A stretch of DNA of 37,935 nt, taken from NCBI RefSeq assembly GCF_000484635.1, contig NZ_AXVM01000012.1, positions 1 through 37,935 on the forward strand, given 5' to 3'. This document shows, piece after piece, positions 5,345 to 35,015 of this stretch. Both the position numbers and the translations under genes were made by a program. The stretch is from Comamonas badia DSM 17552 (lineage in GTDB: Bacteria; Pseudomonadota; Gammaproteobacteria; Burkholderiales; Burkholderiaceae_C). The notes beneath the pieces were generated by a model, which was given only the letters and a program-made list of their open reading frames with translations, searched no databases and was not told where the DNA came from. Positions within the stretch are counted from its first letter, which is position 1; each line of letters starts with the position of its first letter.

Positions 5345-6139
5345 TCACATCACCTCTCCGCCACTGACGGAAATACCCTGCCCGGTGACCGCACCGGCAC
5401 TGTCTTCGCACAGCCACAGCACGGCACTGGCGACTTCATCGGGCTGCACCAGGCGCTTCTGCGGATTGCCCGCCGCAAGCTGCGCCCGCGCCTCATCCTC
5501 GCTGCGGCCGGTCTTGGCGACGATATTGGCGATGCTGTCCTTGAGCAAGTCGGTTTCGGTATAGCCCGGGCAGACGGCGTTGACCGTGACGCCCTTGGTG
5601 GCCAGTTCCAGCGCCAGCGCGCGCGTGAGGCCCAGCACCCCGTGCTTGGCCGCGCAATAGGCGCTGACGTAGGCGTAGCCGCGCTGTGCCGCGGTGCTGG
5701 CCACGTTCACCACACGCCCCCAGCCGGCGGACAGCATGCCCGGCAGCGCGGCCTGGGTGCAGACCATGGTGCCGGTCAGGTTGACCGCCAGCATCTTGTT
5801 CCAGAGCGCCATGTCCATCTTTGCAAACGGCACGCTTTCGGCCTGGCCAGCGTTGTTCACCAGCGTGTCCATGGCGCCAAAGCGGCCCGCCGCCTGCGCA
5901 AATGCCGCGCGGACGGCTGCCGGATCGGCCACGTCGGCAGACACCGCCTGCAGCCGCGCGGCCGCGCCGGCGCTGCCCGCAAGCTGCGGCAGGCGATCCG
6001 CCGCCACCGGACTGCGCCCGAGCATCGTCACGCGCGCGCCACGGGCCAGCAGCGCCTGCGTGACGGCAAGACCGATGCCGCGCGCACCACCCGTCACCAG
6101 GCAGTGGCGCGCATCCCAGGCAGGTGCAACGGCGCTCAT
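5345..6139 (-). CDS. Short-chain dehydrogenase (3-hydroxyacyl-CoA dehydrogenase type)
   Basis: Classical SDR of 264 residues. The Rossmann motif TGGARGIG is at 16-23, NNAG at 105-108, and the catalytic triad Ser158, Tyr171 and Lys175 (YCAAK) is complete. I start it at ATG 6139, 5 nt after the stop of the monooxygenase/reductase; a longer in-frame extension only overlaps that gene. The acidic residue expected after the second beta strand for NAD preference is not obvious, so the cofactor is left open. As part of a beta-oxidation-like set (hydratase, acyl-CoA dehydrogenase) it most likely oxidises a 3-hydroxyacyl-CoA intermediate of 2-aminobenzoyl-CoA breakdown. Confidence 0.87.
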   Translation of the reverse strand: MSAVAPAWDARHCLVTGGARGIGLAVTQALLARGARVTMLGRSPVAADRLPQLAGSAGAAARLQAVSADVADPAAVRAAFAQAAGRFGAMDTLVNNAGQAESVPFAKMDMALWNKMLAVNLTGTMVCTQAALPGMLSAGWGRVVNVASTAAQRGYAYVSAYCAAKHGVLGLTRALALELATKGVTVNAVCPGYTETDLLKDSIANIVAKTGRSEDEARAQLAAGNPQKRLVQPDEVASAVLWLCEDSAGAVTGQGISVSGGEVM

Positions 6140-6144
6140 GGCAC

Positions 6145-8502
6145 TCACGCCGGCACGTGGATGGCGGCGGCCGCGATCTGCGCCGCGATCTGCGCCTTCT
6201 CGCGCTCGAACAGCGCCTCCATCTGGCGTTTGCCCTGGTAATACTGCCTGGGCCAGGCGATCGGCGTGTAGCCGATCCTGGCCGCCTCGGTCAGCGTCCA
6301 GTTCGGGTTGGCCAGGTGCGGGCGCGCCACGGCGCAGAGGTCGGCGCGGCCTGCGGCGATGATGCTGTTGACATGGTCGGCCTCCGTAATCGCGCCCACG
6401 GCGATGGTGGCGATGCCCGCCTCCTGGCGTACACGGTCGGCGAACGGGGTTTGCCACATGCGGCCGTAGACCGGCTTTTCTTCCTTGCTGACCTGCCCAG
6501 CCGAGCAATCGACCATGTCGGCGCCCGCAGCCTTGAAGGCCTTGGCGATGTCCACGGCATCGGCCGGCGTGATGCCGCCCTCCACCCAGTCGGTGGCGGA
6601 GATGCGCACCGACATGGGCTTGTCTGCCGGCCAGACGGCGCGCATGGCCCTGAAGACCTCCAGCGGGTAGCGCAGGCGGTTTTCCAGGCTGCCGCCGTAC
6701 TCGTCCTGGCGGTGATTCGTCAGCGGCGAGATGAATTCGGAGAGCAGATAGCCGTGGGCGCAGTGCAGTTCGATCCAGTCCACCCCGATGTCGATGCAAT
6801 CCTTCGCCGCCTCGACAAAGCGCTGCTTGAGGTGCTCCATCTCGCTCTTGCTGATTTCCCTGGCCACCTGGCTCACGCCCTCAAGGTATTGCTGCTCGGA
6901 GGCGCCGACGATGGGCCAGTTGCCCGATTCCAGCGGCAGGTCGGTGCCATCCCAGGCCAGGCGCGTCGAGGCCTTGGCGCCGGCGTGGCCCAGCTGCATG
7001 GCGAACCTGGCGTCGGAGTGTTCGTGAATCCAGCGGGCAATGCGCTTCCAGCCCGCCTTCTGCTCCGCCGTGTAGAGGCCGGGGCAGCCCGGGGTGATGC
7101 GGCCTTCCGGCGTGATGCAGGTCATCTCGGCAAACACCATGCCGGCGCCGCCCATGGCGCGTGCGCCCAGGTGCACCAGGTGGTAATCGTCCGGCAGACC
7201 ATCGACGCACGAATACTGCGCCATCGGCGAGACGACGACGCGGTTCTTCAGCGTGAGGCCGCGCACGGTGAACGGCGTGAACATCGGCGGCGGCGGCGTC
7301 TGGTCGTCCGCCACCGTCAGACCATCACGGCGCGCCAGCCAGCGCTCGTAGCCTTCCAGCCAGGCCTTGTCGCGCAGGCGCAGGTTCTCGTGGCTGATGC
7401 GCTGGCTGCGCGTGAGCATGGAGTACATGAACTGCGGCGGCTCCAGCTGGTCGCAGTAGCGCTCGCCGCACACCTCGAACCACTCCATGGCGTTCCAGGC
7501 GGCGTTCTGCAGGCGCAGCGCCTCGATGCTGCGCGTGGCCTGGTACTGCGTCAACACATCCTCGATCTGGCCAGCGCCGTCGCCCAGTTCGATGAACTTG
7601 CGCGTGAGATCGATCGCGTCTTCCAGCGCCAGCTTGGTGCCCGAGCCGATGGCGAAGTGCGCCGTGTGCACCGCATCGCCCAGCAGCACCACATGCGCTC
7701 CGTTCTGGTTCCTGAACCACCAGTGGTCGCACTTGACGCGGGTGAAATTGATCCATGCCGAGCCGCGCAGGTGGCGCGCGTTGCTCATCAGCCTCTCGCC
7801 CTGAAGGTTGTCGGCAAACAGTTTTTCGCAGAATTCGATCGACTCGTCCGGCCCGGCGTTGTCCAGGCCATGCGCCTTCCACACATGCTCGGGGCATTCG
7901 ACGATGAAGGTGGACGTTTCTTCGTCGAACTTGTAGATGTGCGCCTGGAACCAGCCGTGCTCGGTCTTCTTGAAATCAAAGGTGAAGGCGTCGTACTGGC
8001 GCTTGGTGCCCAGCCAGATGAAGCGGTTGGGGCGCACCACCAGTTCGGGCTGGAATTTGTCGGCGTGCAGCGTGCGGATCTTGGAATTGATGCCGTCGCT
8101 GGCGATGATGAGATCGGCATCCGGAAAATCCAGATCGGAGTCGACATCGGTCTCGAACACCAGTTTGACGCCCAGTTCCTCGCAGCGCGCCTGCAGGATG
8201 TTGAGCAGTTTCTTGCGCCCGATGCCGACGAAGCCATGGCCGCCCGAGCGGATCACCTCGCCCTTGAACAGCAGTTCGATGTCATCCCAGTGGTTGAACG
8301 CCTGCTGGATGGTGTCGGCGGTCGGCTTGTCCCACTGGCGCATGTTGTCCATCGTGGCGTCGGAAAACACCACGCCCCAGCCAAAGGTGTCATAGGGCTT
8401 GTTGCGTTCGACGACGGTGATGTCGTGCGAGGGGTTGCGCTGCTTCATCAGGAGCGCGAAATACAGGCCGCCGGGGCCGCCGCCGATACAGACAATCTTC
8501 AT
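6145..8502 (-). CDS. Fused FAD monooxygenase / Old-Yellow-Enzyme reductase (2-aminobenzoyl-CoA monooxygenase/reductase type)
   Basis: A 785-residue fusion. Residues 1 to about 400 are a p-hydroxybenzoate-hydroxylase-like flavin monooxygenase (GGGPGG at 8-13, the internal [10 protein letters not shown] segment, GDAVH). Residues from about 407 to the end are an Old Yellow Enzyme-type flavin reductase ([37 protein letters not shown]). This architecture is that of Azoarcus evansii 2-aminobenzoyl-CoA monooxygenase/reductase, which hydroxylates the aromatic CoA ester and reduces the ring in one protein. Databases often name relatives bifunctional salicylyl-CoA 5-hydroxylase/oxidoreductase. It is the first gene after the promoter and is followed within 5 nt by the SDR. 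Substrate: 2-aminobenzoyl-CoA most likely, salicylyl-CoA possible. Confidence 0.92.
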
Positions 8503-9812: not shown

Positions 9813-9818
9813 CCGCCG

Positions 9819-10028
9819 CTGTCAGGAGAGAGTGCCGCCGCAAGGCCGGCGCCGCCGAAGGCGCCAGGCTTCACGCTCAAACGCTCAGGCAAAAGGACTG
9901 GCAAGTGCCCCGGCAACGGCGCACCCACCCTGCTGGAGAGAGAAGCCCGCAGCCACCGCGCGGCAGGCTTCCACCGAAGGAGCAAGCGCGGCATCGCCCG
10001 CGTGAATCTCTCAGGTAAAGCGGACAGC
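9819..10028 (+). promoter_or_regulatory. Tandem glycine riboswitch
   Basis: Two glycine aptamers in series. Aptamer I (about 9819-9904) contains GGAGAGAGTGCC, CCGAAGGCGCCAGG and CTCAGGCAAAAGGACTGGC. Aptamer II (about 9932-10028) contains GGAGAGAGAAGCC, CCACCGAAGGAGCAAG and CTCTCAGGTAAAGCGGACAG. These are the conserved cores of the family. It sits between the -10 at 9807 and gcvT and is followed by a terminator hairpin, consistent with glycine-dependent control of glycine cleavage, usually switching expression on when glycine is in excess. Confidence 0.95.
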
Positions 10029-10031
10029 CGG

Positions 10032-10065
10032 GCATGCCCACACCCCGTGGTGTGCCATGCTTTTT
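10032..10065 (+). terminator. Riboswitch expression-platform terminator before gcvT
   Basis: GCATG pairs with CATGC and CACACC with GGTGTG around a CCGT loop, with a small internal mismatch, followed directly by TTTTT. It starts a few bases after aptamer II, so glycine binding could decide whether it forms. The 3' arm contains an ATG (10057) in the gcvT frame that should not be taken as the start. Confidence 0.75.
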
Positions 10066-31244: not shown

Positions 31245-31284
31245 GCCCGGGTGGTGAAATTGGTAGACGCAGGGGACTCAAAAA
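31245..31284 (+). pseudogene. 5' half of tRNA-Leu(CAA), truncated after the anticodon loop
   Basis: GCCCGGG, the D-arm GGTGAAATTGGTAGAC and GCAGGGGACTCAAAA are the acceptor strand, D-arm, and anticodon stem/loop of tRNA-Leu(CAA). It agrees with the intact copy at 31471 except for one acceptor-stem base (GCCCGGG against GCCCGAG) and, unlike it, has the continuous loop CTCAAAA without an intron. Directly after the loop, where TCCCC is required to close the anticodon stem, the sequence changes to ACAGGGAC. No matching 3' half (with CCCGGGC) follows within the next 190 bp. Confidence 0.85.
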
Positions 31285-31470
31285 CAGGGACTTCTACGTA
31301 GGTCTTGCTTGAGGCCACCGTCTGCCAAGCCGCATAGGGCAAGGGATTGAGTGAAAAATCGCCTCTTGATCGAGATGCAAGCATTTCGAGCCAGGAGTCA
31401 GTTAGGAGCCAGGACGATGCAAGCTGGTTCCTAGCGAGGAGTAGGTAGTTGAAGTAGCATCGTGCGTCAT
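31285..31470 (+). other. Linker between tRNA half and intact tRNA, rich in short repeats
   Basis: 186 bp without coding potential. It holds an 8-bp palindrome CTACGTAG, a direct repeat GATGCAAGC (31374-31382 and 31416-31424), a direct repeat GAGCCAGGA (31388-31396 and 31406-31414), and a hairpin TAGGAGCCAG/CTGGTTCCTA (31404-31413 with 31424-31433, one G-T pair). These could be integrase or accessory-protein sites at an element end; this is inference. Confidence 0.45.
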
Positions 31471-31792
31471 GCCCGAGTGGTGAAATTGGTAGACGCAGGG
31501 GACTCAGACCAAATTTGAGCCCTCCGGGGGAAACCCCAGAGGTGAAGCCCGTCAAACTCGGCGAAGGCCCTGGACGCAAGTCCGAGCTAATACCGAGCCA
31601 AGCCCTGGAGCCGAAAGGTTCCTCGGAAGGTGTAGAGAGCAGACGGCGGGCACCTAAGGCCGAAAGGCTATGGTGAAGGCGTGCTCCAGCCCACGAACGT
31701 CGTTTCTTCGGAGACGGCGGCGGCGAAAGCCGAAGTGGGAAGAAAATCCCCCGCCGCAAGGCGTGCCGGTTCGATTCCGGCCTCGGGCACCA
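31471..31792 (+). tRNA. tRNA-Leu(CAA) interrupted by a group I intron
   Basis: 5' exon 31471-31505 (GCCCGAG acceptor strand, D-arm, anticodon stem GGGGA, then CTC) and 3' exon 31743-31792 (AAAATCCCC, a long variable arm CGCCGCAAGGCG, T-arm CCGGTTCGATTCCGG, CTCGGGC, then encoded ACCA). Spliced length is 85 nt, normal for a class II tRNA-Leu. The joined loop is CTCAAAA, so the anticodon is CAA. The intron sits between positions 34 and 35; because an A flanks both junctions, the boundary could shift by one nucleotide. A strong terminator starts 5 nt after the gene. Confidence 0.93.
31506..31742 (+). ncRNA. Group I self-splicing intron (Azoarcus tRNA-Ile-like, probably subgroup IC3)
   Basis: 237 nt, no open frame, ending in G. 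Paired regions by eye: P1, TTTGAGCCC with the 5' exon; P2, CCTC/GAGG with a GGGG-GAAA-CCCC hairpin (31521-31542); P3, GCCCG (31547) with CGGGC (31647); P4, CTCGG (31557) with CCGAG (31593); P5, GGAC-GCAA-GTCC; P6, GAGCC-GAAA-GGTTC; P8, GGCC-GAAA-GGCT inside CACC/GGTG; P9, CCCAC/GTGGG enclosing CGGC-GAAA-GCCG. The core AAGGTGTAGAGAGCAGACGG and CTATGGTGAAGGC is nearly that of the Azoarcus tRNA-Ile ribozyme as I recall it. Abundant GNRA loops suggest a compact, active fold. Confidence 0.92.
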
Positions 31793-31796
31793 ATTC

Positions 31797-31830
31797 AAAA
31801 GCCGCCCCTGTTCACGCAGGGGCGGCTTTT
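31797..31830. terminator. Bidirectional terminator between tRNA-Leu and the trb operon
   Basis: AAAAGCCGCCCCTG and CAGGGGCGGCTTTT form a perfect 14-bp stem around TTCACG, with T-runs on both strands (TTTTCCTTTTTT on plus). It ends the tRNA transcript and the trb/DUF2274 transcript. The last codons of the DUF2274 gene (Lys-Ala-Ala-Pro-Ala-stop) lie inside the hairpin. Confidence 0.9.
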
Positions 31831-32054
31831 CCTTTTTTGGGCTGCGTGCGCTTGAAGCCACGATCCCCAGTCATGAACGCCTCCAGCATGTGCGGGATCA
31901 GCGTCGCCGCATCGACCGCTTCGCCGTAGGTCTGCGCGTGCAGCGCGGCGTAGCCGTCGAGGTCTGCTTTCAGGCTGGCCGGGCATGCAAAGGTCATCTT
32001 CGTGGATTCCAGTTTCGGCAGCGGCCCGAGCCGCAGCTTCTTGGCCGTGCTCAT
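31812..32054 (-). CDS. DUF2274 family protein at the end of the trb operon
   Basis: 80 residues. KLRLGPLPKLESTKMTFACP and HAQTYGEAVDAATLIPHMLE are the DUF2274 signature; a ribbon-helix-helix-like DNA-binding fold is possible but not shown. It regularly follows trbI in Tn4371-type conjugative elements. ATG 32054 overlaps the trbI stop by 4 nt. The C-terminal residues KAAPA and the stop are encoded within the terminator hairpin, so this is the last gene of the operon and probably lies close to the element boundary. Confidence 0.87.
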   Translation of the reverse strand: MSTAKKLRLGPLPKLESTKMTFACPASLKADLDGYAALHAQTYGEAVDAATLIPHMLEAFMTGDRGFKRTQPKKGKAAPA

Positions 32055-33313
32055 CGCATCGCCCCTCTGTTGAAAAAAAGCGGCTGATAAGGCCGCAGCA
32101 CCAGGTCCCGGTTGACGATGATCCGCACCGGCAGGCCCGGCCGTGTGGTCAGCGTCGGTTGGATGTTCAGGTTGCGCCGGGTGATCTCCTGGCCGACCTG
32201 ATTGATGCTGTCCTGTGCGCTGTCGCGCCCGGCGATGACGATGTGGTTGCCGTCCTGCCGATTCTCGGGCGCGGCCAGTTCGGCGCCCACGCCCAGCAGC
32301 GTCGTCAGCGCCGCGCCGGCGACGATGCGGCTCCAGTGGTAGTCCACGCCGTCTTCCAGGCCGGAATAGCCCGCCGGATCGGTGCCAACAAGGTTGTCGA
32401 TGGTCAGTGAAGACGTGTCCGGCAGGATGATCCGGTTCCACACCACTTGCACACGGCTCTGCCCGTAGCTGACCTGGCTGTTGTATTTGCCCAGGATGCG
32501 CGATCCCTGCGGGATCAGAAGGAACTTGCCCGTGGCCGTGTCGTAGACCGGCTCCGTCACCGTGGCGATCACGTCGCCCGGCAAATCGGACTTGATGCCC
32601 GTCGCCAGCGCGCCGGCGATTACTGTCCCGGCCATCACCTGATATGGCGAAGTCGGCATTTGTAGATTGCCGGAATTACGGGTTTCCGTAGAACCGGCTT
32701 TCAGGAACGCCTCTTTCTGGTTTTGCCGGTTCTGCACGGCGGTCGGATCGCTGGGTTGCGCAGCCGTCGAGGCCGGCCCTGCCGCCAGCGGGTCGAAGGC
32801 CGCGATCGTGCTTGTGCTGCCCGGCGCCGCCTGCGCCACCGCGGCGGCGGCGTGGCCTTGCCCGCCCGAACGGAAGAACACCGACGAAGCCGCTGCGGCT
32901 TCCGCCTCCTTGCGCAAGGCGTCGTTGGGATCGTGGGCGGGGGCCGCGTAGGCGGCCACGGCCGCCTGTTGCGAGTTCACGATGGCCGGACCCAGGTCGC
33001 CCGGAAGCGGCGGCCCCAGTTCGGGCGCCTTCGGCAGCTTCGAGTAGTCCGAAGGCAGACCGTCGAGCCCTTCGGACTTCGAGACGCGATCGACGTTGTA
33101 AAGCTCGGTCTGCGCGCCGGTGCCGCGCCGGTGCGGTTGCAGCGACCAGATCGTGGCCCCGAGCACGGCGACCGACAGGCAGCCCATCAGCATCGCCAGC
33201 GTGCGCCGGTTCAGGCGTGTGACCGGGCGCGGCTGCGCGCGCAGCGTCACCGCCTCGGGCGCGACCTTGCCCGCCTGCGGCGCGGCACGGTCGGGGGTAT
33301 CGTCCTGGCTCAT
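32051..33313 (-). CDS. trbI: Conjugal transfer protein TrbI (VirB10-like)
   Basis: 420 residues. A cytoplasmic tail (1-38), one inner-membrane segment (about 39-56, LAMLMGCLSVAVLGATIW), a Pro/Ala-rich periplasmic linker, and the C-terminal VirB10 domain (SPYQVMAGTVIAGALATGI, IPQGSRILGKY, VVWNRIILPD). VirB10 proteins span the envelope and link the energy-providing ATPases to the outer-membrane core of the type IV secretion channel. ATG 33313 is chosen because GGAGGAA lies 8 nt upstream; a TTG two codons earlier overlaps that site. Two nt separate it from the trbG stop. Confidence 0.94.
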   Translation of the reverse strand: MSQDDTPDRAAPQAGKVAPEAVTLRAQPRPVTRLNRRTLAMLMGCLSVAVLGATIWSLQPHRRGTGAQTELYNVDRVSKSEGLDGLPSDYSKLPKAPELGPPLPGDLGPAIVNSQQAAVAAYAAPAHDPNDALRKEAEAAAASSVFFRSGGQGHAAAAVAQAAPGSTSTIAAFDPLAAGPASTAAQPSDPTAVQNRQNQKEAFLKAGSTETRNSGNLQMPTSPYQVMAGTVIAGALATGIKSDLPGDVIATVTEPVYDTATGKFLLIPQGSRILGKYNSQVSYGQSRVQVVWNRIILPDTSSLTIDNLVGTDPAGYSGLEDGVDYHWSRIVAGAALTTLLGVGAELAAPENRQDGNHIVIAGRDSAQDSINQVGQEITRRNLNIQPTLTTRPGLPVRIIVNRDLVLRPYQPLFFNRGAMR

Positions 33314-33315
33314 GG

Positions 33316-34314
33316 TCAATTCCTCCGCGTGCCGTCCGTGCGTTCGATCCGCACCACATCGCCCTTGTCCCCGCCCAGGCGCAGCTCGGCCGCACCGAAC
33401 AGCCGATCCACGATGTAGTACGGCGGGCGGAAACGGTAGTTGACGAGTTGCCCGTCGCCCTGCGCGCCGATGACGAACAGCGGCGGCAGTTCGCCCTGGG
33501 CGATGCCCGCCGGGAACTGGATATAGACCTTCTCACCGTCATCGAAGGCACGCAGTGGTTTCCACGACGGATTGCTGCCGCTGACCGCATAGCGGAAGCG
33601 GATCTTCTCCAGTGACAGGCCGGTATCGACAGGCGCGGCGGCGCTGGCCGCCTGTGCCTGGCGCTGCAAGGCCAGCATCTTGTCCTTCGGGTACTCCCAG
33701 GACACCGACGCCATCCACGTCTTCTCGGTCGAAGTCAGCTCCAGCAGGTAGGTGCGCCGGCTGGTGGTGATGACGAGATTGGTCTTCAACCCCGAGCGGA
33801 TCGGCTTGACCATCACGTTCACGCGCAGCGCGCCGCCACTGCCGCTTGACGTGTCCCCGACGATCCAGCGCACCGTGTCGCCGGCGGCGACCGTTATCAA
33901 TTCTTCGCCCGGCTGCAGCGTAACCACCGTCACACGGCCCACGGCCGCATAGATCTGGTACAGCGCGCCTTCGGTGAAGGGCCAGACTTGAATCGCATTG
34001 ACGTAGCCCTCCCGTGTAGGGGCAATGCGCGCCTCGGCATTGGCGCGGGCTACGCGCACGGTTTCATCGGCAGGTTCTGCTGCGGACTTCGCATCGACAC
34101 TGGGCATGGGCTTCAACTGCGCCGGCATCGGCAACACCTCAGGCACGGTCACGACCTCCACCGGCTTCGGCGCCTCGGGCAACGGATGGGCCTGTACCGG
34201 CTCATCGAGCGGGATCACCGGCGGTGGCTTGCCCGGCGTGGCGCAGCCCGCGAACAGGACAGCCGATGCCAGCAGGATCACCGACACCGCGGATTTACGG
34301 AAAACTGCATTCAT
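33316..34314 (-). CDS. trbG: Conjugal transfer protein TrbG (VirB9-like lipoprotein)
   Basis: 332 residues. A signal sequence ends in the lipobox LFAGC with Cys24 as the lipidated residue, so the protein is anchored to the membrane. A Pro-rich segment follows, then the VirB9 domain (WPFTEGALYQIYAAVGRVT, LQPGEELI, and the C-terminal FRPPYYIVDRLF). It forms the outer-membrane ring of the secretion channel with TrbI. ATG 34314 overlaps the trbF stop by 4 nt. Longer frames upstream would lie within trbF and are rejected. Confidence 0.93.
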   Translation of the reverse strand: MNAVFRKSAVSVILLASAVLFAGCATPGKPPPVIPLDEPVQAHPLPEAPKPVEVVTVPEVLPMPAQLKPMPSVDAKSAAEPADETVRVARANAEARIAPTREGYVNAIQVWPFTEGALYQIYAAVGRVTVVTLQPGEELITVAAGDTVRWIVGDTSSGSGGALRVNVMVKPIRSGLKTNLVITTSRRTYLLELTSTEKTWMASVSWEYPKDKMLALQRQAQAASAAAPVDTGLSLEKIRFRYAVSGSNPSWKPLRAFDDGEKVYIQFPAGIAQGELPPLFVIGAQGDGQLVNYRFRPPYYIVDRLFGAAELRLGGDKGDVVRIERTDGTRRN

Positions 34315-35015
34315 GGTTTTGCTCCTTCGTTTCCTTCCAGTTCGCGGCTCCACGACAGCCCGTTGACGTAGATACCCAAGGGGTTCTTGCGCAGGCGCTG
34401 CTCGGTGCGCGGGGTCTGCTGCACGATGGAAACCACGGCGTTCCAGCGCTCGGTGCGGTCTAGCGCGCCGTTGACGAAGCGCGTTTCCGTCCAGCGCACG
34501 TTGAATGACGTGTCGCTGGCGCGGGTCACGCTGGTGATCTGCACCGTCACCGACTCCTTGCCGATGCGCGCAAACGGGTTGTTCACGCGGGCGTACTCGT
34601 TGAGCACCACAGCGCCCTTATCGGTGGTGTAGTCGTAGGCATCGAGCCAGTTCTGCCGCACCACGATGGGGTCGATGGACAGCGAGCGTACGAGGCCGAT
34701 GAAGCGGGCCAGGTGGTAGGCGATCTGTGCATCGCTGGGCCGGTACGGCGTAGCGGCTTCGCCAACCGCGCGTACCTGGCCTGCGTTGTCCACCTCCACG
34801 ACGTAGGGCGTCACGATGGATTGCGCCGAGCGCCATACCAGGCCGCCGGCCATCAGCAGCGCGAGCGTCAGGCAACCGAAGGCCATCAGCCGCCAGTTCT
34901 TCGCCTGCACACGCGGCGAGCCGATACGCTCGTCCCACACCTGGCCGGCAGCTTGGTACGGCGTGGCGGGCTGCGGTGTGTCGGCATAGCGCACCTGCGG
35001 TTTTCTGAATCGCAT
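34311..35015 (-). CDS. trbF: Conjugal transfer protein TrbF (VirB8-like)
   Basis: 234 residues. A short cytoplasmic N-terminus, one membrane segment (about 43-62, LMAFGCLTLALLMAGGLVW), and a periplasmic VirB8-like NTF2-fold domain ending in NPLGIYVNGLSWSREL, a conserved TrbF motif. VirB8 proteins scaffold assembly of the type IV secretion system at the inner membrane. GGAGAA precedes ATG 35015; 24 nt separate it from the trbL stop and it overlaps trbG at its own end. Confidence 0.93.
   Translation of the reverse strand: MRFRKPQVRYADTPQPATPYQAAGQVWDERIGSPRVQAKNWRLMAFGCLTLALLMAGGLVWRSAQSIVTPYVVEVDNAGQVRAVGEAATPYRPSDAQIAYHLARFIGLVRSLSIDPIVVRQNWLDAYDYTTDKGAVVLNEYARVNNPFARIGKESVTVQITSVTRASDTSFNVRWTETRFVNGALDRTERWNAVVSIVQQTPRTEQRLRKNPLGIYVNGLSWSRELEGNEGAKP

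What the first reader, a model, noticed from the sequence alone, without database searches (positions are those of the whole stretch)
31471..31792. tRNA-Leu(CAA) carries a 237-nt group I intron in its anticodon loop
The two exons join to a normal class II tRNA-Leu with encoded CCA, and the insert shows P1-P9 pairings and a catalytic core close to the Azoarcus tRNA-Ile(CAU) ribozyme. Group I introns are well known in cyanobacterial tRNA-Leu(UAA), Azoarcus tRNA-Ile and Agrobacterium tRNA-Arg. A proteobacterial tRNA-Leu(CAA) host is one I do not recall as described. Standard annotation is likely to miss this tRNA.
Basis: partly seen in the sequence, partly recalled or inferred. Interest (0 to 1): 0.85.

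Follow-up and report, generated by a model that had tools for sequence, protein, structure and literature searches.

The report
Intron-split spare tRNA on mobile element
A mobile DNA element cuts the bacterium's only plain tRNA-Leu(CAA) gene in two and brings a spare copy of it; the spare carries a probable self-splicing intron exactly where the element's own integrase would cut, which probably protects it.

Summary
Window 31471-31792 is a tRNA-Leu(CAA) with a 237-nt group I intron (31506-31742) between C34 and A35. Default ARAGORN and Rfam at gathering score miss it.

The context is the finding. The gene lies 187 bp inside a trb-type integrative and conjugative element (ICE) that has split the cell's own tRNA-Leu(CAA) at the anticodon loop: 5' half at 31245-31283, 3' half on another contig beside a tyrosine integrase. 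Joining the flanks gives, letter for letter, the intact gene of element-free relatives. So the element breaks the only plain CAA gene and supplies an intron-bearing replacement. Related ICEs that target tRNA-Leu(UAA) carry an intron-bearing tRNA-Leu(UAA) (3 of 4); genomes with only related integrases at a non-tRNA site lack it (0 of 12). Half-tRNAs also lie near 15 of 96 intron tRNAs from other bacteria, and phage Daredevil has a hidden intron tRNA-Lys beside its attP-like core.

My reading: the intron interrupts the 7-bp core, so the replacement is no target for the element's integrase, while splicing restores the tRNA. Architecture: near certain. Shield: inferred, about 0.55. Main rival: a passenger intron, since most tRNA introns seen have no element nearby.

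The parts
31245..31283 (+). [quoted passage not shown]
   Evidence: Its 3' half is on G000:C1:3308-3357; the joined flanks give an intact tRNA-Leu(caa) identical over 85 nt to the gene of G007 and G008
31277..31283 (+). 7-bp core CTCAAAA, the whole anticodon loop, shared by attL, attR and attB
   Evidence: Direct comparison of junctions and empty sites
31284..31470 (+). 187-bp spacer at the end of the ICE, between attL and the replacement tRNA; no sigma-70 consensus promoter found
31471..31505 (+). Exon 1 of the replacement tRNA-Leu(CAA), ending at C34
31506..31742 (+). Group I intron, 237 nt, between C34 and A35, inside the core sequence
31743..31792 (+). Exon 2 of the replacement tRNA-Leu(CAA), with CCA
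31797..31830 (+). Terminator-like hairpin after the tRNA
   Evidence: 15 pairs, then T-rich tail; 3 terminator-like sites found against 1.1 +/- 1.2 in shuffles
31812..32441 (-). ICE gene, DUF2274
   Evidence: PF10038, E 5e-22
32051..33319 (-). ICE gene, TrbI-like (ORF as listed; the true start may be later)
   Evidence: TrbI subfamily match, below the curated cut-off; a TrbI Pfam match in the ORF at the like place of the G006 element
33316..34353 (-). ICE gene, TrbG/CagX-like
   Evidence: PF03524
34311..35015 (-). ICE gene, VirB8/TrbF-like
   Evidence: PF04335
35040..36425 (-). ICE gene, TrbL/VirB6-like
   Evidence: PF04610
36767..37522 (-). ICE gene, TrbJ
   Evidence: NCBIfam TIGR02780, over cut-off

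Best explanation
An ICE carrying a trb-type conjugation system integrates by a tyrosine integrase into the anticodon loop of the host's tRNA-Leu(CAA) gene. The shared core is only the 7 bases CTCAAAA, so the host gene is left in two dead halves. Just inside attL, in the same orientation, the ICE carries a complete replacement tRNA-Leu(CAA) interrupted by a group I intron between C34 and A35, in the middle of the core. Splicing restores the tRNA, which becomes the cell's only plain source of that anticodon. Because a replacement must keep the anticodon loop, an intron-free replacement would recreate the target on the element itself. The intron splits that target at the DNA level and hides it from the element's integrase and from relatives with the same specificity. 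SHOWN by sequence: the split host gene, the short core, the integrase beside attR, the intron-bearing replacement, the empty-site match, and the match between integrase target and replacement anticodon. INFERRED: that the element moves by this integrase; splicing in the cell; the shield effect; and a further guess that the host tRNA promoter left upstream of attL transcribes the replacement. My confidence is about 0.95 for the architecture and 0.55 for the shield.
For: Junctions and empty sites. Integrase by Pfam inside attR. ICE genes. One CAA 5'-half-plus-loop site in 16 of 17 genomes by exact pattern (G001, 86% complete, had none); in the nine carriers among them it is the split one. In 200 family genomes, 7 carry the CAA-type intron and 0 of these 7 have an intact CAA gene by pattern, against 146 of 193 others (Fisher). 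Target and replacement switch together: 7 integrases at tRNA-Leu(CAA), with intron tRNA-Leu(CAA) in all 7 genomes; 4 integrases at tRNA-Leu(UAA), with intron tRNA-Leu(UAA) found for 3; 18 related integrases beside a non-tRNA site, and 0 of the 12 genomes in which only that kind was classed match the intron. Recurrence: a half copy of the same tRNA near 18 of 96 intron tRNAs from other bacteria (15 after dropping three doubtful ones) against 1 of 51 intron-free tRNAs in the same loci. Daredevil: intron tRNA-Lys(UUU) 153 bp from an attP-like core with the same stem-loop over 16 of 16 bases. The replacement stem-loop equals attB over 17 of 17 bases here, whereas the intron-free tRNA-Lys(ttt) of phages Chaser and Silverleaf differ in the stem from the attP-like site beside their integrases.
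Against: No RNA or recombination data. Many tRNA introns have no split tRNA nearby: 78 of 96 genome loci, 66 of 66 viral loci, 12 of 25 in this family. In G044 and G171 the intron UAA gene sits next to the gene that follows tRNA-Leu(UAA) elsewhere in the family, so introns also live in native places. UAA-type replacements already differ from the host stem at two positions on each side, so they may not need a shield. Intron-free replacements exist in phages. One UAA-targeting case, G154 (240 contigs, 87% complete), showed no intron tRNA. Daredevil makes clear plaques (PMC10865867, section read), which does not suggest that its hidden tRNA works, and Rfam does not recognise its intron at E 0.1; 13 of 14 loci also miss RF00028 at gathering score. 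In the half-copy test the null reached 63 and 38 at most, above some of the hits. Anticodon loops are favoured sites for both integrases and tRNA introns (recalled), so the coincidence of place is partly expected. The integrase-target comparison rests on two related clades, so its Fisher value (2e-5) overstates independence.
Confidence: 0.6

Rival explanations
1. Passenger intron. The ICE took its replacement tRNA from a source that already had a group I intron in the anticodon loop; the intron is tolerated and has no role in integration.
For: Such introns are common in tRNAs with no element in sight: 66 of 66 intron tRNAs in viral loci without a half copy and 78 of 96 genome loci without one. 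Native-place intron genes in G044 and G171.
Against: Half copies near intron tRNAs are more frequent than near intron-free tRNAs (18 of 96 against 1 of 51). The intron is kept across CAA and UAA versions of the ICE although the anticodon changed. In 10 genomes with a tRNA-targeting integrase, 9 have the intron and one, G154, has none found.
Confidence: 0.3
2. The intron is a control device: splicing (for example GTP-dependent) sets how much replacement tRNA is made and ties survival of the element or cell to growth state, with no role at the DNA level.
For: In carriers it is the only plain CAA gene by pattern, and in 16 genomes no intact UAA gene was found by pattern beside the intron-bearing one, so splicing would be a bottleneck.
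Against: No regulatory feature was seen, though none was searched for beyond a promoter scan. It does not explain why the intron sits at the integration core in elements.
Confidence: 0.07
3. The intron-bearing gene is a decayed copy that does not splice, and UUG codons are read by tRNA-Leu(UAA).
For: P1 has C-G at the 5' splice site where most relatives have U (77 of 96 and 52 of 66 records end exon 1 in T as split by ARAGORN). RF00028 score is low. Wobble reading of UUG by UAA is established knowledge (recalled).
Against: The intron is 97-99% identical in five other carriers and 86% in G004, and its family keeps a paired structure. Related UAA introns sit in the only UAA gene found by pattern, which should have to work.
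Confidence: 0.05

Closest known systems
tRNA-dependent lysogeny of actinobacteriophages (PMC10865867; abstract, passages and sections 10 and 11 read)
   Same: Tyrosine integrase, short core (8-17 bp in its Table 2) that does not rebuild the tRNA, element-borne tRNA of the same isotype replaces the broken one; phage Gaia uses tRNA-Leu(CAA).
   Different: Here the element is an ICE in another group of bacteria and the replacement gene is interrupted by a group I intron inside the core. [quoted passage not shown]
Group I introns of bacterial tRNA genes (cyanobacterial tRNA-Leu(UAA), Azoarcus tRNA-Ile(CAU), Agrobacterium tRNA-Arg(CCU); recalled; review PMC3984707 seen in passages)
   Same: Short intron in the anticodon loop, similar core, joined exons make a normal tRNA.
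   Different: Leu(CAA) host with C at the splice site, and residence in an ICE as replacement for a split host gene.
Tn4371-like trb-type ICEs (recalled)
   Same: TraG-type coupling protein, Trb genes at one end, tyrosine integrase at the other, metal-transport cargo.
   Different: Targets a tRNA anticodon loop and carries the replacement tRNA; membership was not tested against a reference element.
IStrons (mentioned in a passage of PMC3984707)
   Same: A mobile element that uses a group I intron to spare a host function.
   Different: There the intron is part of the moving unit; here the intron sits in a spare gene carried by the element.

Membership tests
Group I intron (tRNA type) | Match to RF00028 | tested here: inconclusive
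   Window 20.5 bits, E 0.0069 on 651 bases, below the gathering score of 50; 1 of 14 relatives' loci passes (L290, 55.9 bits)
Group I intron (tRNA type) | Conserved paired core with covariation | tested here: met
   45 introns, 58 pairs, 43 varying on both sides, consensus energy -65 against -0.6 for shuffles; the P7 pseudoknot was not tested
Group I intron (tRNA type) | Intron ends in G and exons join to a tRNA | tested here: met
Group I intron (tRNA type) | U-G pair at the 5' splice site | tested here: not met
   C34-G read by eye; exon 1 ends in C in 2 of 96 and 2 of 66 other records as split by ARAGORN. I treat U-G as typical rather than defining (recalled), so the filing stands
Group I intron (tRNA type) | Self-splicing with GTP | not testable with these tools
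   Needs an in vitro assay
tRNA-dependent integration | Tyrosine integrase beside an att site in a tRNA gene | tested here: met
tRNA-dependent integration | Core too short to rebuild the tRNA | tested here: met
   7-bp core; host gene left split
[quoted passage not shown]
   CAA in 7 of 7 carriers of 200 genomes, UAA in 3 of 4 UAA-targeting cases
tRNA-dependent integration | Carried tRNA needed for survival or stable integration | not testable with these tools
   Needs a knock-out
Integrative and conjugative element | Integrase, coupling protein, mating-pair genes | tested here: met
   G006 element of 58,223 bp:
Integrative and conjugative element | Relaxase | tested here: inconclusive
   Only DUF3363 found, which I recall as part of relaxase proteins
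Tn4371-like ICE | Homology to Tn4371 modules | not tested
   Likeness of gene order recalled only

The most novel reading that the evidence does not exclude
Group I introns in bacterial tRNA anticodon loops are, in part, shields that integrative elements use to make their replacement tRNAs invisible to their own integrase. When such an element decays, the intron-bearing gene stays as the cell's only copy. This would explain why so many bacterial tRNA introns sit in the anticodon loop and are scattered across lineages.
Probability: 0.35. Interest if true: 0.93.

Novelty: new variant of a known kind. Interest (0 to 1): 0.85.

Why it matters
If true, a ribozyme is used as a DNA-level shield: it breaks a recombination target in the gene and mends the product in RNA. 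It would give a function to introns usually taken as neutral passengers, extend tRNA-dependent integration from actinophages to conjugative elements, and suggest a source for the scattered tRNA introns of bacteria. It also shows that common tools hide the only plain tRNA-Leu(CAA) gene of such cells, and that phage Daredevil, published as not encoding its own tRNA, has a hidden intron-bearing one. The idea can be tested directly with one integrase and a few target plasmids.

Tried and rejected
Self-contained 460-bp unit between the two 5' halves: rejected when the host 3' half was found 58-82 kb away in complete genomes. First guess that ORFs next to attR on the + strand were the integrase: antisense, no Pfam match; the true gene is on the - strand. 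Leu(CAA) intron tRNAs in viral loci L076, L086 and L146: mis-splits by ARAGORN (they read as Arg UCU by eye). Most 'tRNA-Tyr(ata)' calls look by eye like Leu(UAA) split wrongly. Universal link of tRNA introns to integration: not supported, 0 of 66 viral loci. Chaser, Silverleaf, Smoothie, Yuna and Archie: no intron tRNA found in the stretches of about 11 kb around the integrase. RF00028 over the whole genome of the window: no match at E 0.001. Promoter in the 187-bp spacer: none by consensus. Single-strand folding of the intron with exon ends: z -2.8, 1 of 200 shuffles as stable, weaker than the alignment test.

ARAGORN found an intron tRNA at 66 of 121 viral and 96 of 117 genome matches; the rest were dropped. 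Three of 18 half copies (L185, L194, L199) were judged doubtful by eye. The permuted null for half copies had maxima of 63 and 38 against cut-offs of 41 and 32.3. Of 33 integrase places, 30 were fetched as loci and 29 could be classed by their att-like site (L299, L300 and L321 by eye); L318 could not, and three places were not fetched. Pattern searches for intact genes are exact and can miss variants. In one search intact tRNAs were not masked; the one 3'-half match, G134, is not part of an intact tRNA by ARAGORN.

Literature: among the papers listed by the searches (two of these listed 20 of 316 and 20 of 403), I saw none that links group I introns in tRNA genes to integrative elements. The library lacks most subscription papers.

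Full report
THE OBSERVATION. Window 31471-31792 reads as a tRNA-Leu(CAA) whose anticodon loop is interrupted by 237 nt. Intron 31506-31742 lies between C34 and A35 and ends in G. ARAGORN finds it only with the intron option; the joined 85 nt score as tRNA-Leu(caa). RF00028 matches it full length but weakly, 20.5 bits against a gathering score of 50, and not at all in whole-window or whole-genome searches at their thresholds. The stronger test is comparative: 45 tRNA-Leu introns, the window's among them, share 58 pairs, 43 of which vary on both sides (2501 of 2593 cells paired), with a consensus energy of -65.2 against -0.6 +/- 0.9 for 20 column shuffles. L290, one of the 45, passes RF00028; the other 13 of 14 loci given to that search do not.

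THE CONTEXT. A second 5' half of tRNA-Leu ends at 31283, 187 bp upstream of the intron-bearing gene. Its 3' half is on another contig of the same genome (G000:C1:3308-3357). In complete relatives the two halves are far apart: the inserted DNA is 58,223 bp in G006 and 82,379 bp in G012 (from coordinates). attL reads GGGGACTCAAAA then element; attR reads element, CTCAAAA, then TCCCC; empty relatives read GGGGACTCAAAATCCCC. The shared core is CTCAAAA, the anticodon loop. Joining the flanks of G000 and of G006 gives exactly the 85-nt intact tRNA-Leu(CAA) of the element-free relatives G007 and G008. A tyrosine integrase (PF00589 with an arm-binding domain) sits directly inside attR in G000, G006 and G012. 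The element carries a coupling protein, trb genes, a DUF3363 protein and metal-transport cargo. It is an ICE by gene content; transfer was not tested.

THE REPLACEMENT. Ten genomes with this CAA intron gene were seen in all: seven in the 200-genome family set and G001, G003, G005 in the 40 relatives. Nine show both junctions, in draft genomes on different contigs; G001 has a decayed 5' half and I did not find its other end. In 16 of 17 genomes tested there is one CAA 5'-half-plus-loop site by exact pattern, and in the nine carriers among them it is the split one. Of 200 family genomes, the 7 with the CAA-type intron have no intact CAA gene by pattern, against 146 of 193 others with one (Fisher 7.8e-5, not corrected for relatedness).

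TARGET AND REPLACEMENT SWITCH TOGETHER. A search with the G006 integrase in 200 family genomes gave 33 places in 23 genomes at E 1e-60. I could read the att-like site of 29 of the 30 fetched loci. Seven integrases (87-100% identity) sit at tRNA-Leu(CAA) and all seven genomes carry intron tRNA-Leu(CAA). Four (64-66%) sit at tRNA-Leu(UAA); three of these have an intron tRNA-Leu(UAA) 162-164 bp from a split UAA 5' half, and none was found in the fragmented G154. Eighteen (58-63%) sit beside a GGAGTCAT...GAAA...AAAA site that is not recognisably a tRNA; none of the 12 genomes in which only these were classed matches the intron at E 1e-10. G145 has both a CAA and a UAA element. These are few independent events, so the Fisher value of 2e-5 (9 of 10 genomes against 0 of 12) overstates the case, but the anticodon of the spare gene follows the target.

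BEYOND THIS ELEMENT. ARAGORN found intron tRNAs at 96 of 117 genome matches and 66 of 121 viral matches. In the genome set 18 of 96 have a half copy of the same tRNA within 2.5 kb (above the 99th percentile of 384 permuted draws, whose maxima were 63 and 38), against 1 of 51 intron-free tRNAs in the same stretches (Fisher 0.0035). Dropping L185, L194 and L199 by eye leaves 15 (Fisher 0.011). Of the 15, thirteen are 5' halves on the same strand that end in or just past the anticodon loop: eight 106-192 bp upstream, four 1.4-1.5 kb upstream with an integrase in between, one 2.2 kb upstream. Two are 3' halves on the other strand. They include tRNA-Leu(UAA), tRNA-Ile(CAU) (called Met(cat) by ARAGORN) and, in L183, a gene called tRNA-Thr that I read by eye as tRNA-Lys. 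Named hosts include Phenylobacterium, Polynucleobacter, Hydrogenophaga, Bradyrhizobium and Comamonas. In the viral set 0 of 66 have a half copy, and 2 of 120 viral loci have an integrase by my own profile search, whose sensitivity is limited. So many tRNA introns have no visible link to integration.

A PHAGE CASE. Gordonia phage Daredevil holds a tRNA-Lys(UUU) with a 238-nt intron (L059 2841-3152) between its integrase and the next gene, 153 bp from a stem-loop copy that looks like its attP core. The published study says that Daredevil integrates at tRNA-Lys(UUU) without rebuilding it, that only its relative Mollymur encodes its own tRNA, and that Daredevil makes clear plaques as predicted (PMC10865867, sections 10 and 11 read). 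I read the gene as a missed replacement. The clear plaques speak against its being fully functional, or have another cause. Rfam does not recognise this intron at E 0.1. The review PMC3984707 (passages) states that all phage introns then known were in protein genes; the viral set here differs, with the caution that viral contigs may hold host DNA.

MECHANISM. Shown: the element breaks the host gene and brings an intron-bearing gene of the same anticodon. Inferred: splicing, and the shield. The case for the shield is that the replacement must keep the anticodon loop, which is the core; here its whole stem-loop equals attB (17 of 17), as in Daredevil (16 of 16 with the attP-like core), while the intron-free tRNA-Lys(ttt) of phages Chaser (listed as tRNA-dependent in that paper) and Silverleaf (a relative, not in the table I read) have stems unlike the attP-like site near their integrases. 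Two solutions to one problem would be expected: change the stem or split the loop. Against a simple rule, the UAA replacements have both a changed stem and an intron. A further inference is that the replacement lies just downstream of the host tRNA promoter left at attL, in the same direction; no consensus promoter was found in the spacer.

FOSSILS OR PASSENGERS. In this family 25 intron tRNAs from 24 genomes were checked: 12 have a displaced 5' half at -147 to -190, one (G134) a 3' half, 12 neither. In 16 genomes with UAA-type introns no intact UAA gene was found by exact pattern: four had only a split one and twelve had no match (masked bases hide the split half of G175), while three intron-free controls had a match. 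In G044 and G171 the intron gene sits at the native place; in G092 the native neighbour lies near it but on the other strand. These may be what is left after an element has gone, or native genes that gained an intron. The data do not decide, and this is why I keep the passenger reading at 0.3.

NOVELTY. tRNA-dependent integration is known from actinophages, and group I introns are known in bacterial tRNAs. The combination, an intron inside the integration core of a replacement tRNA on a conjugative element, was not seen among the papers listed. The tRNAscan-SE 2.0 paper says that the program was not designed to detect such genes, and names group I introns in tRNA-Ile2 of Acidovorax and Burkholderia (PMC8450103, passages). 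Papers PMC12429752, PMC13313380 and PMC11476347 were searched for 'intron' and hold none.

Noticed in passing
window 9813-10037 (+): Tandem glycine riboswitch, two aptamers of 55.7 and 58.2 bits.
   Followed up: no
L059 2841-3152 (Gordonia phage Daredevil): Unannotated tRNA-Lys(UUU) with a 238-nt group I-like intron beside an attP-like stem-loop, in a phage published as not encoding its own tRNA.
   Followed up: partly
L031, L033, L034, L035 at about 6001-6250: A tRNA-Leu(UAA) with an intron, unannotated, lies near aac(3)-II genes in the four resistance plasmids looked at; 1289 plasmid records match the window's gene, 1267 over at least 80% of the query. In L034 an anticodon-loop half copy ends 160 bp upstream. 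Described only.
   Followed up: partly
L018 (G002), tRNA-Leu(CAA) gene: An element-free relative has three extra bases in the anticodon loop of this tRNA gene (CTCCTCAAAA); a scar of excision, a resistant target or an error are possible.
   Followed up: no
L307-L317, L319, L321-L326: Related ICE integrases sit beside a conserved non-tRNA site, GGAGTCAT..GAAA..AAAA, often followed by what look like terminator hairpins: an apparent preference for gene ends.
   Followed up: no
L061-L180 (viral contigs): 66 intron-bearing tRNA genes at 121 pattern matches in viral contigs, mostly Leu(UAA) and Arg(UCU); 2 of 120 loci have an integrase by my profile; L180 has two such tRNAs about 600 bp apart.
   Followed up: partly
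L189, L199, L212, L228, L240: Intron tRNAs called Met(cat) with a GTCGGG- or GTTGGG-type stem, which look like initiator tRNA-fMet, in records named Nitrospirae, Oscillatoria, Actinomycetota and Saprospiraceae.
   Followed up: no
L210: A Coriobacteriia MAG has what is called tRNA-Leu(caa) with an intron at the same place, after C34; no half copy found.
   Followed up: no
L194: Two intron cores on opposite strands about 500 bp apart in one locus.
   Followed up: no
L056 (G020): Intron tRNA-Ile(CAU) with an integrase beside it and a 21-base copy of its anticodon stem-loop and beyond 1877 bp away, another likely split-and-replace case.
   Followed up: partly
L060 (uncultured 595-kb phage): The intron there seems to contain an open frame that looks by eye like an HNH endonuclease; not tested.
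   Followed up: no
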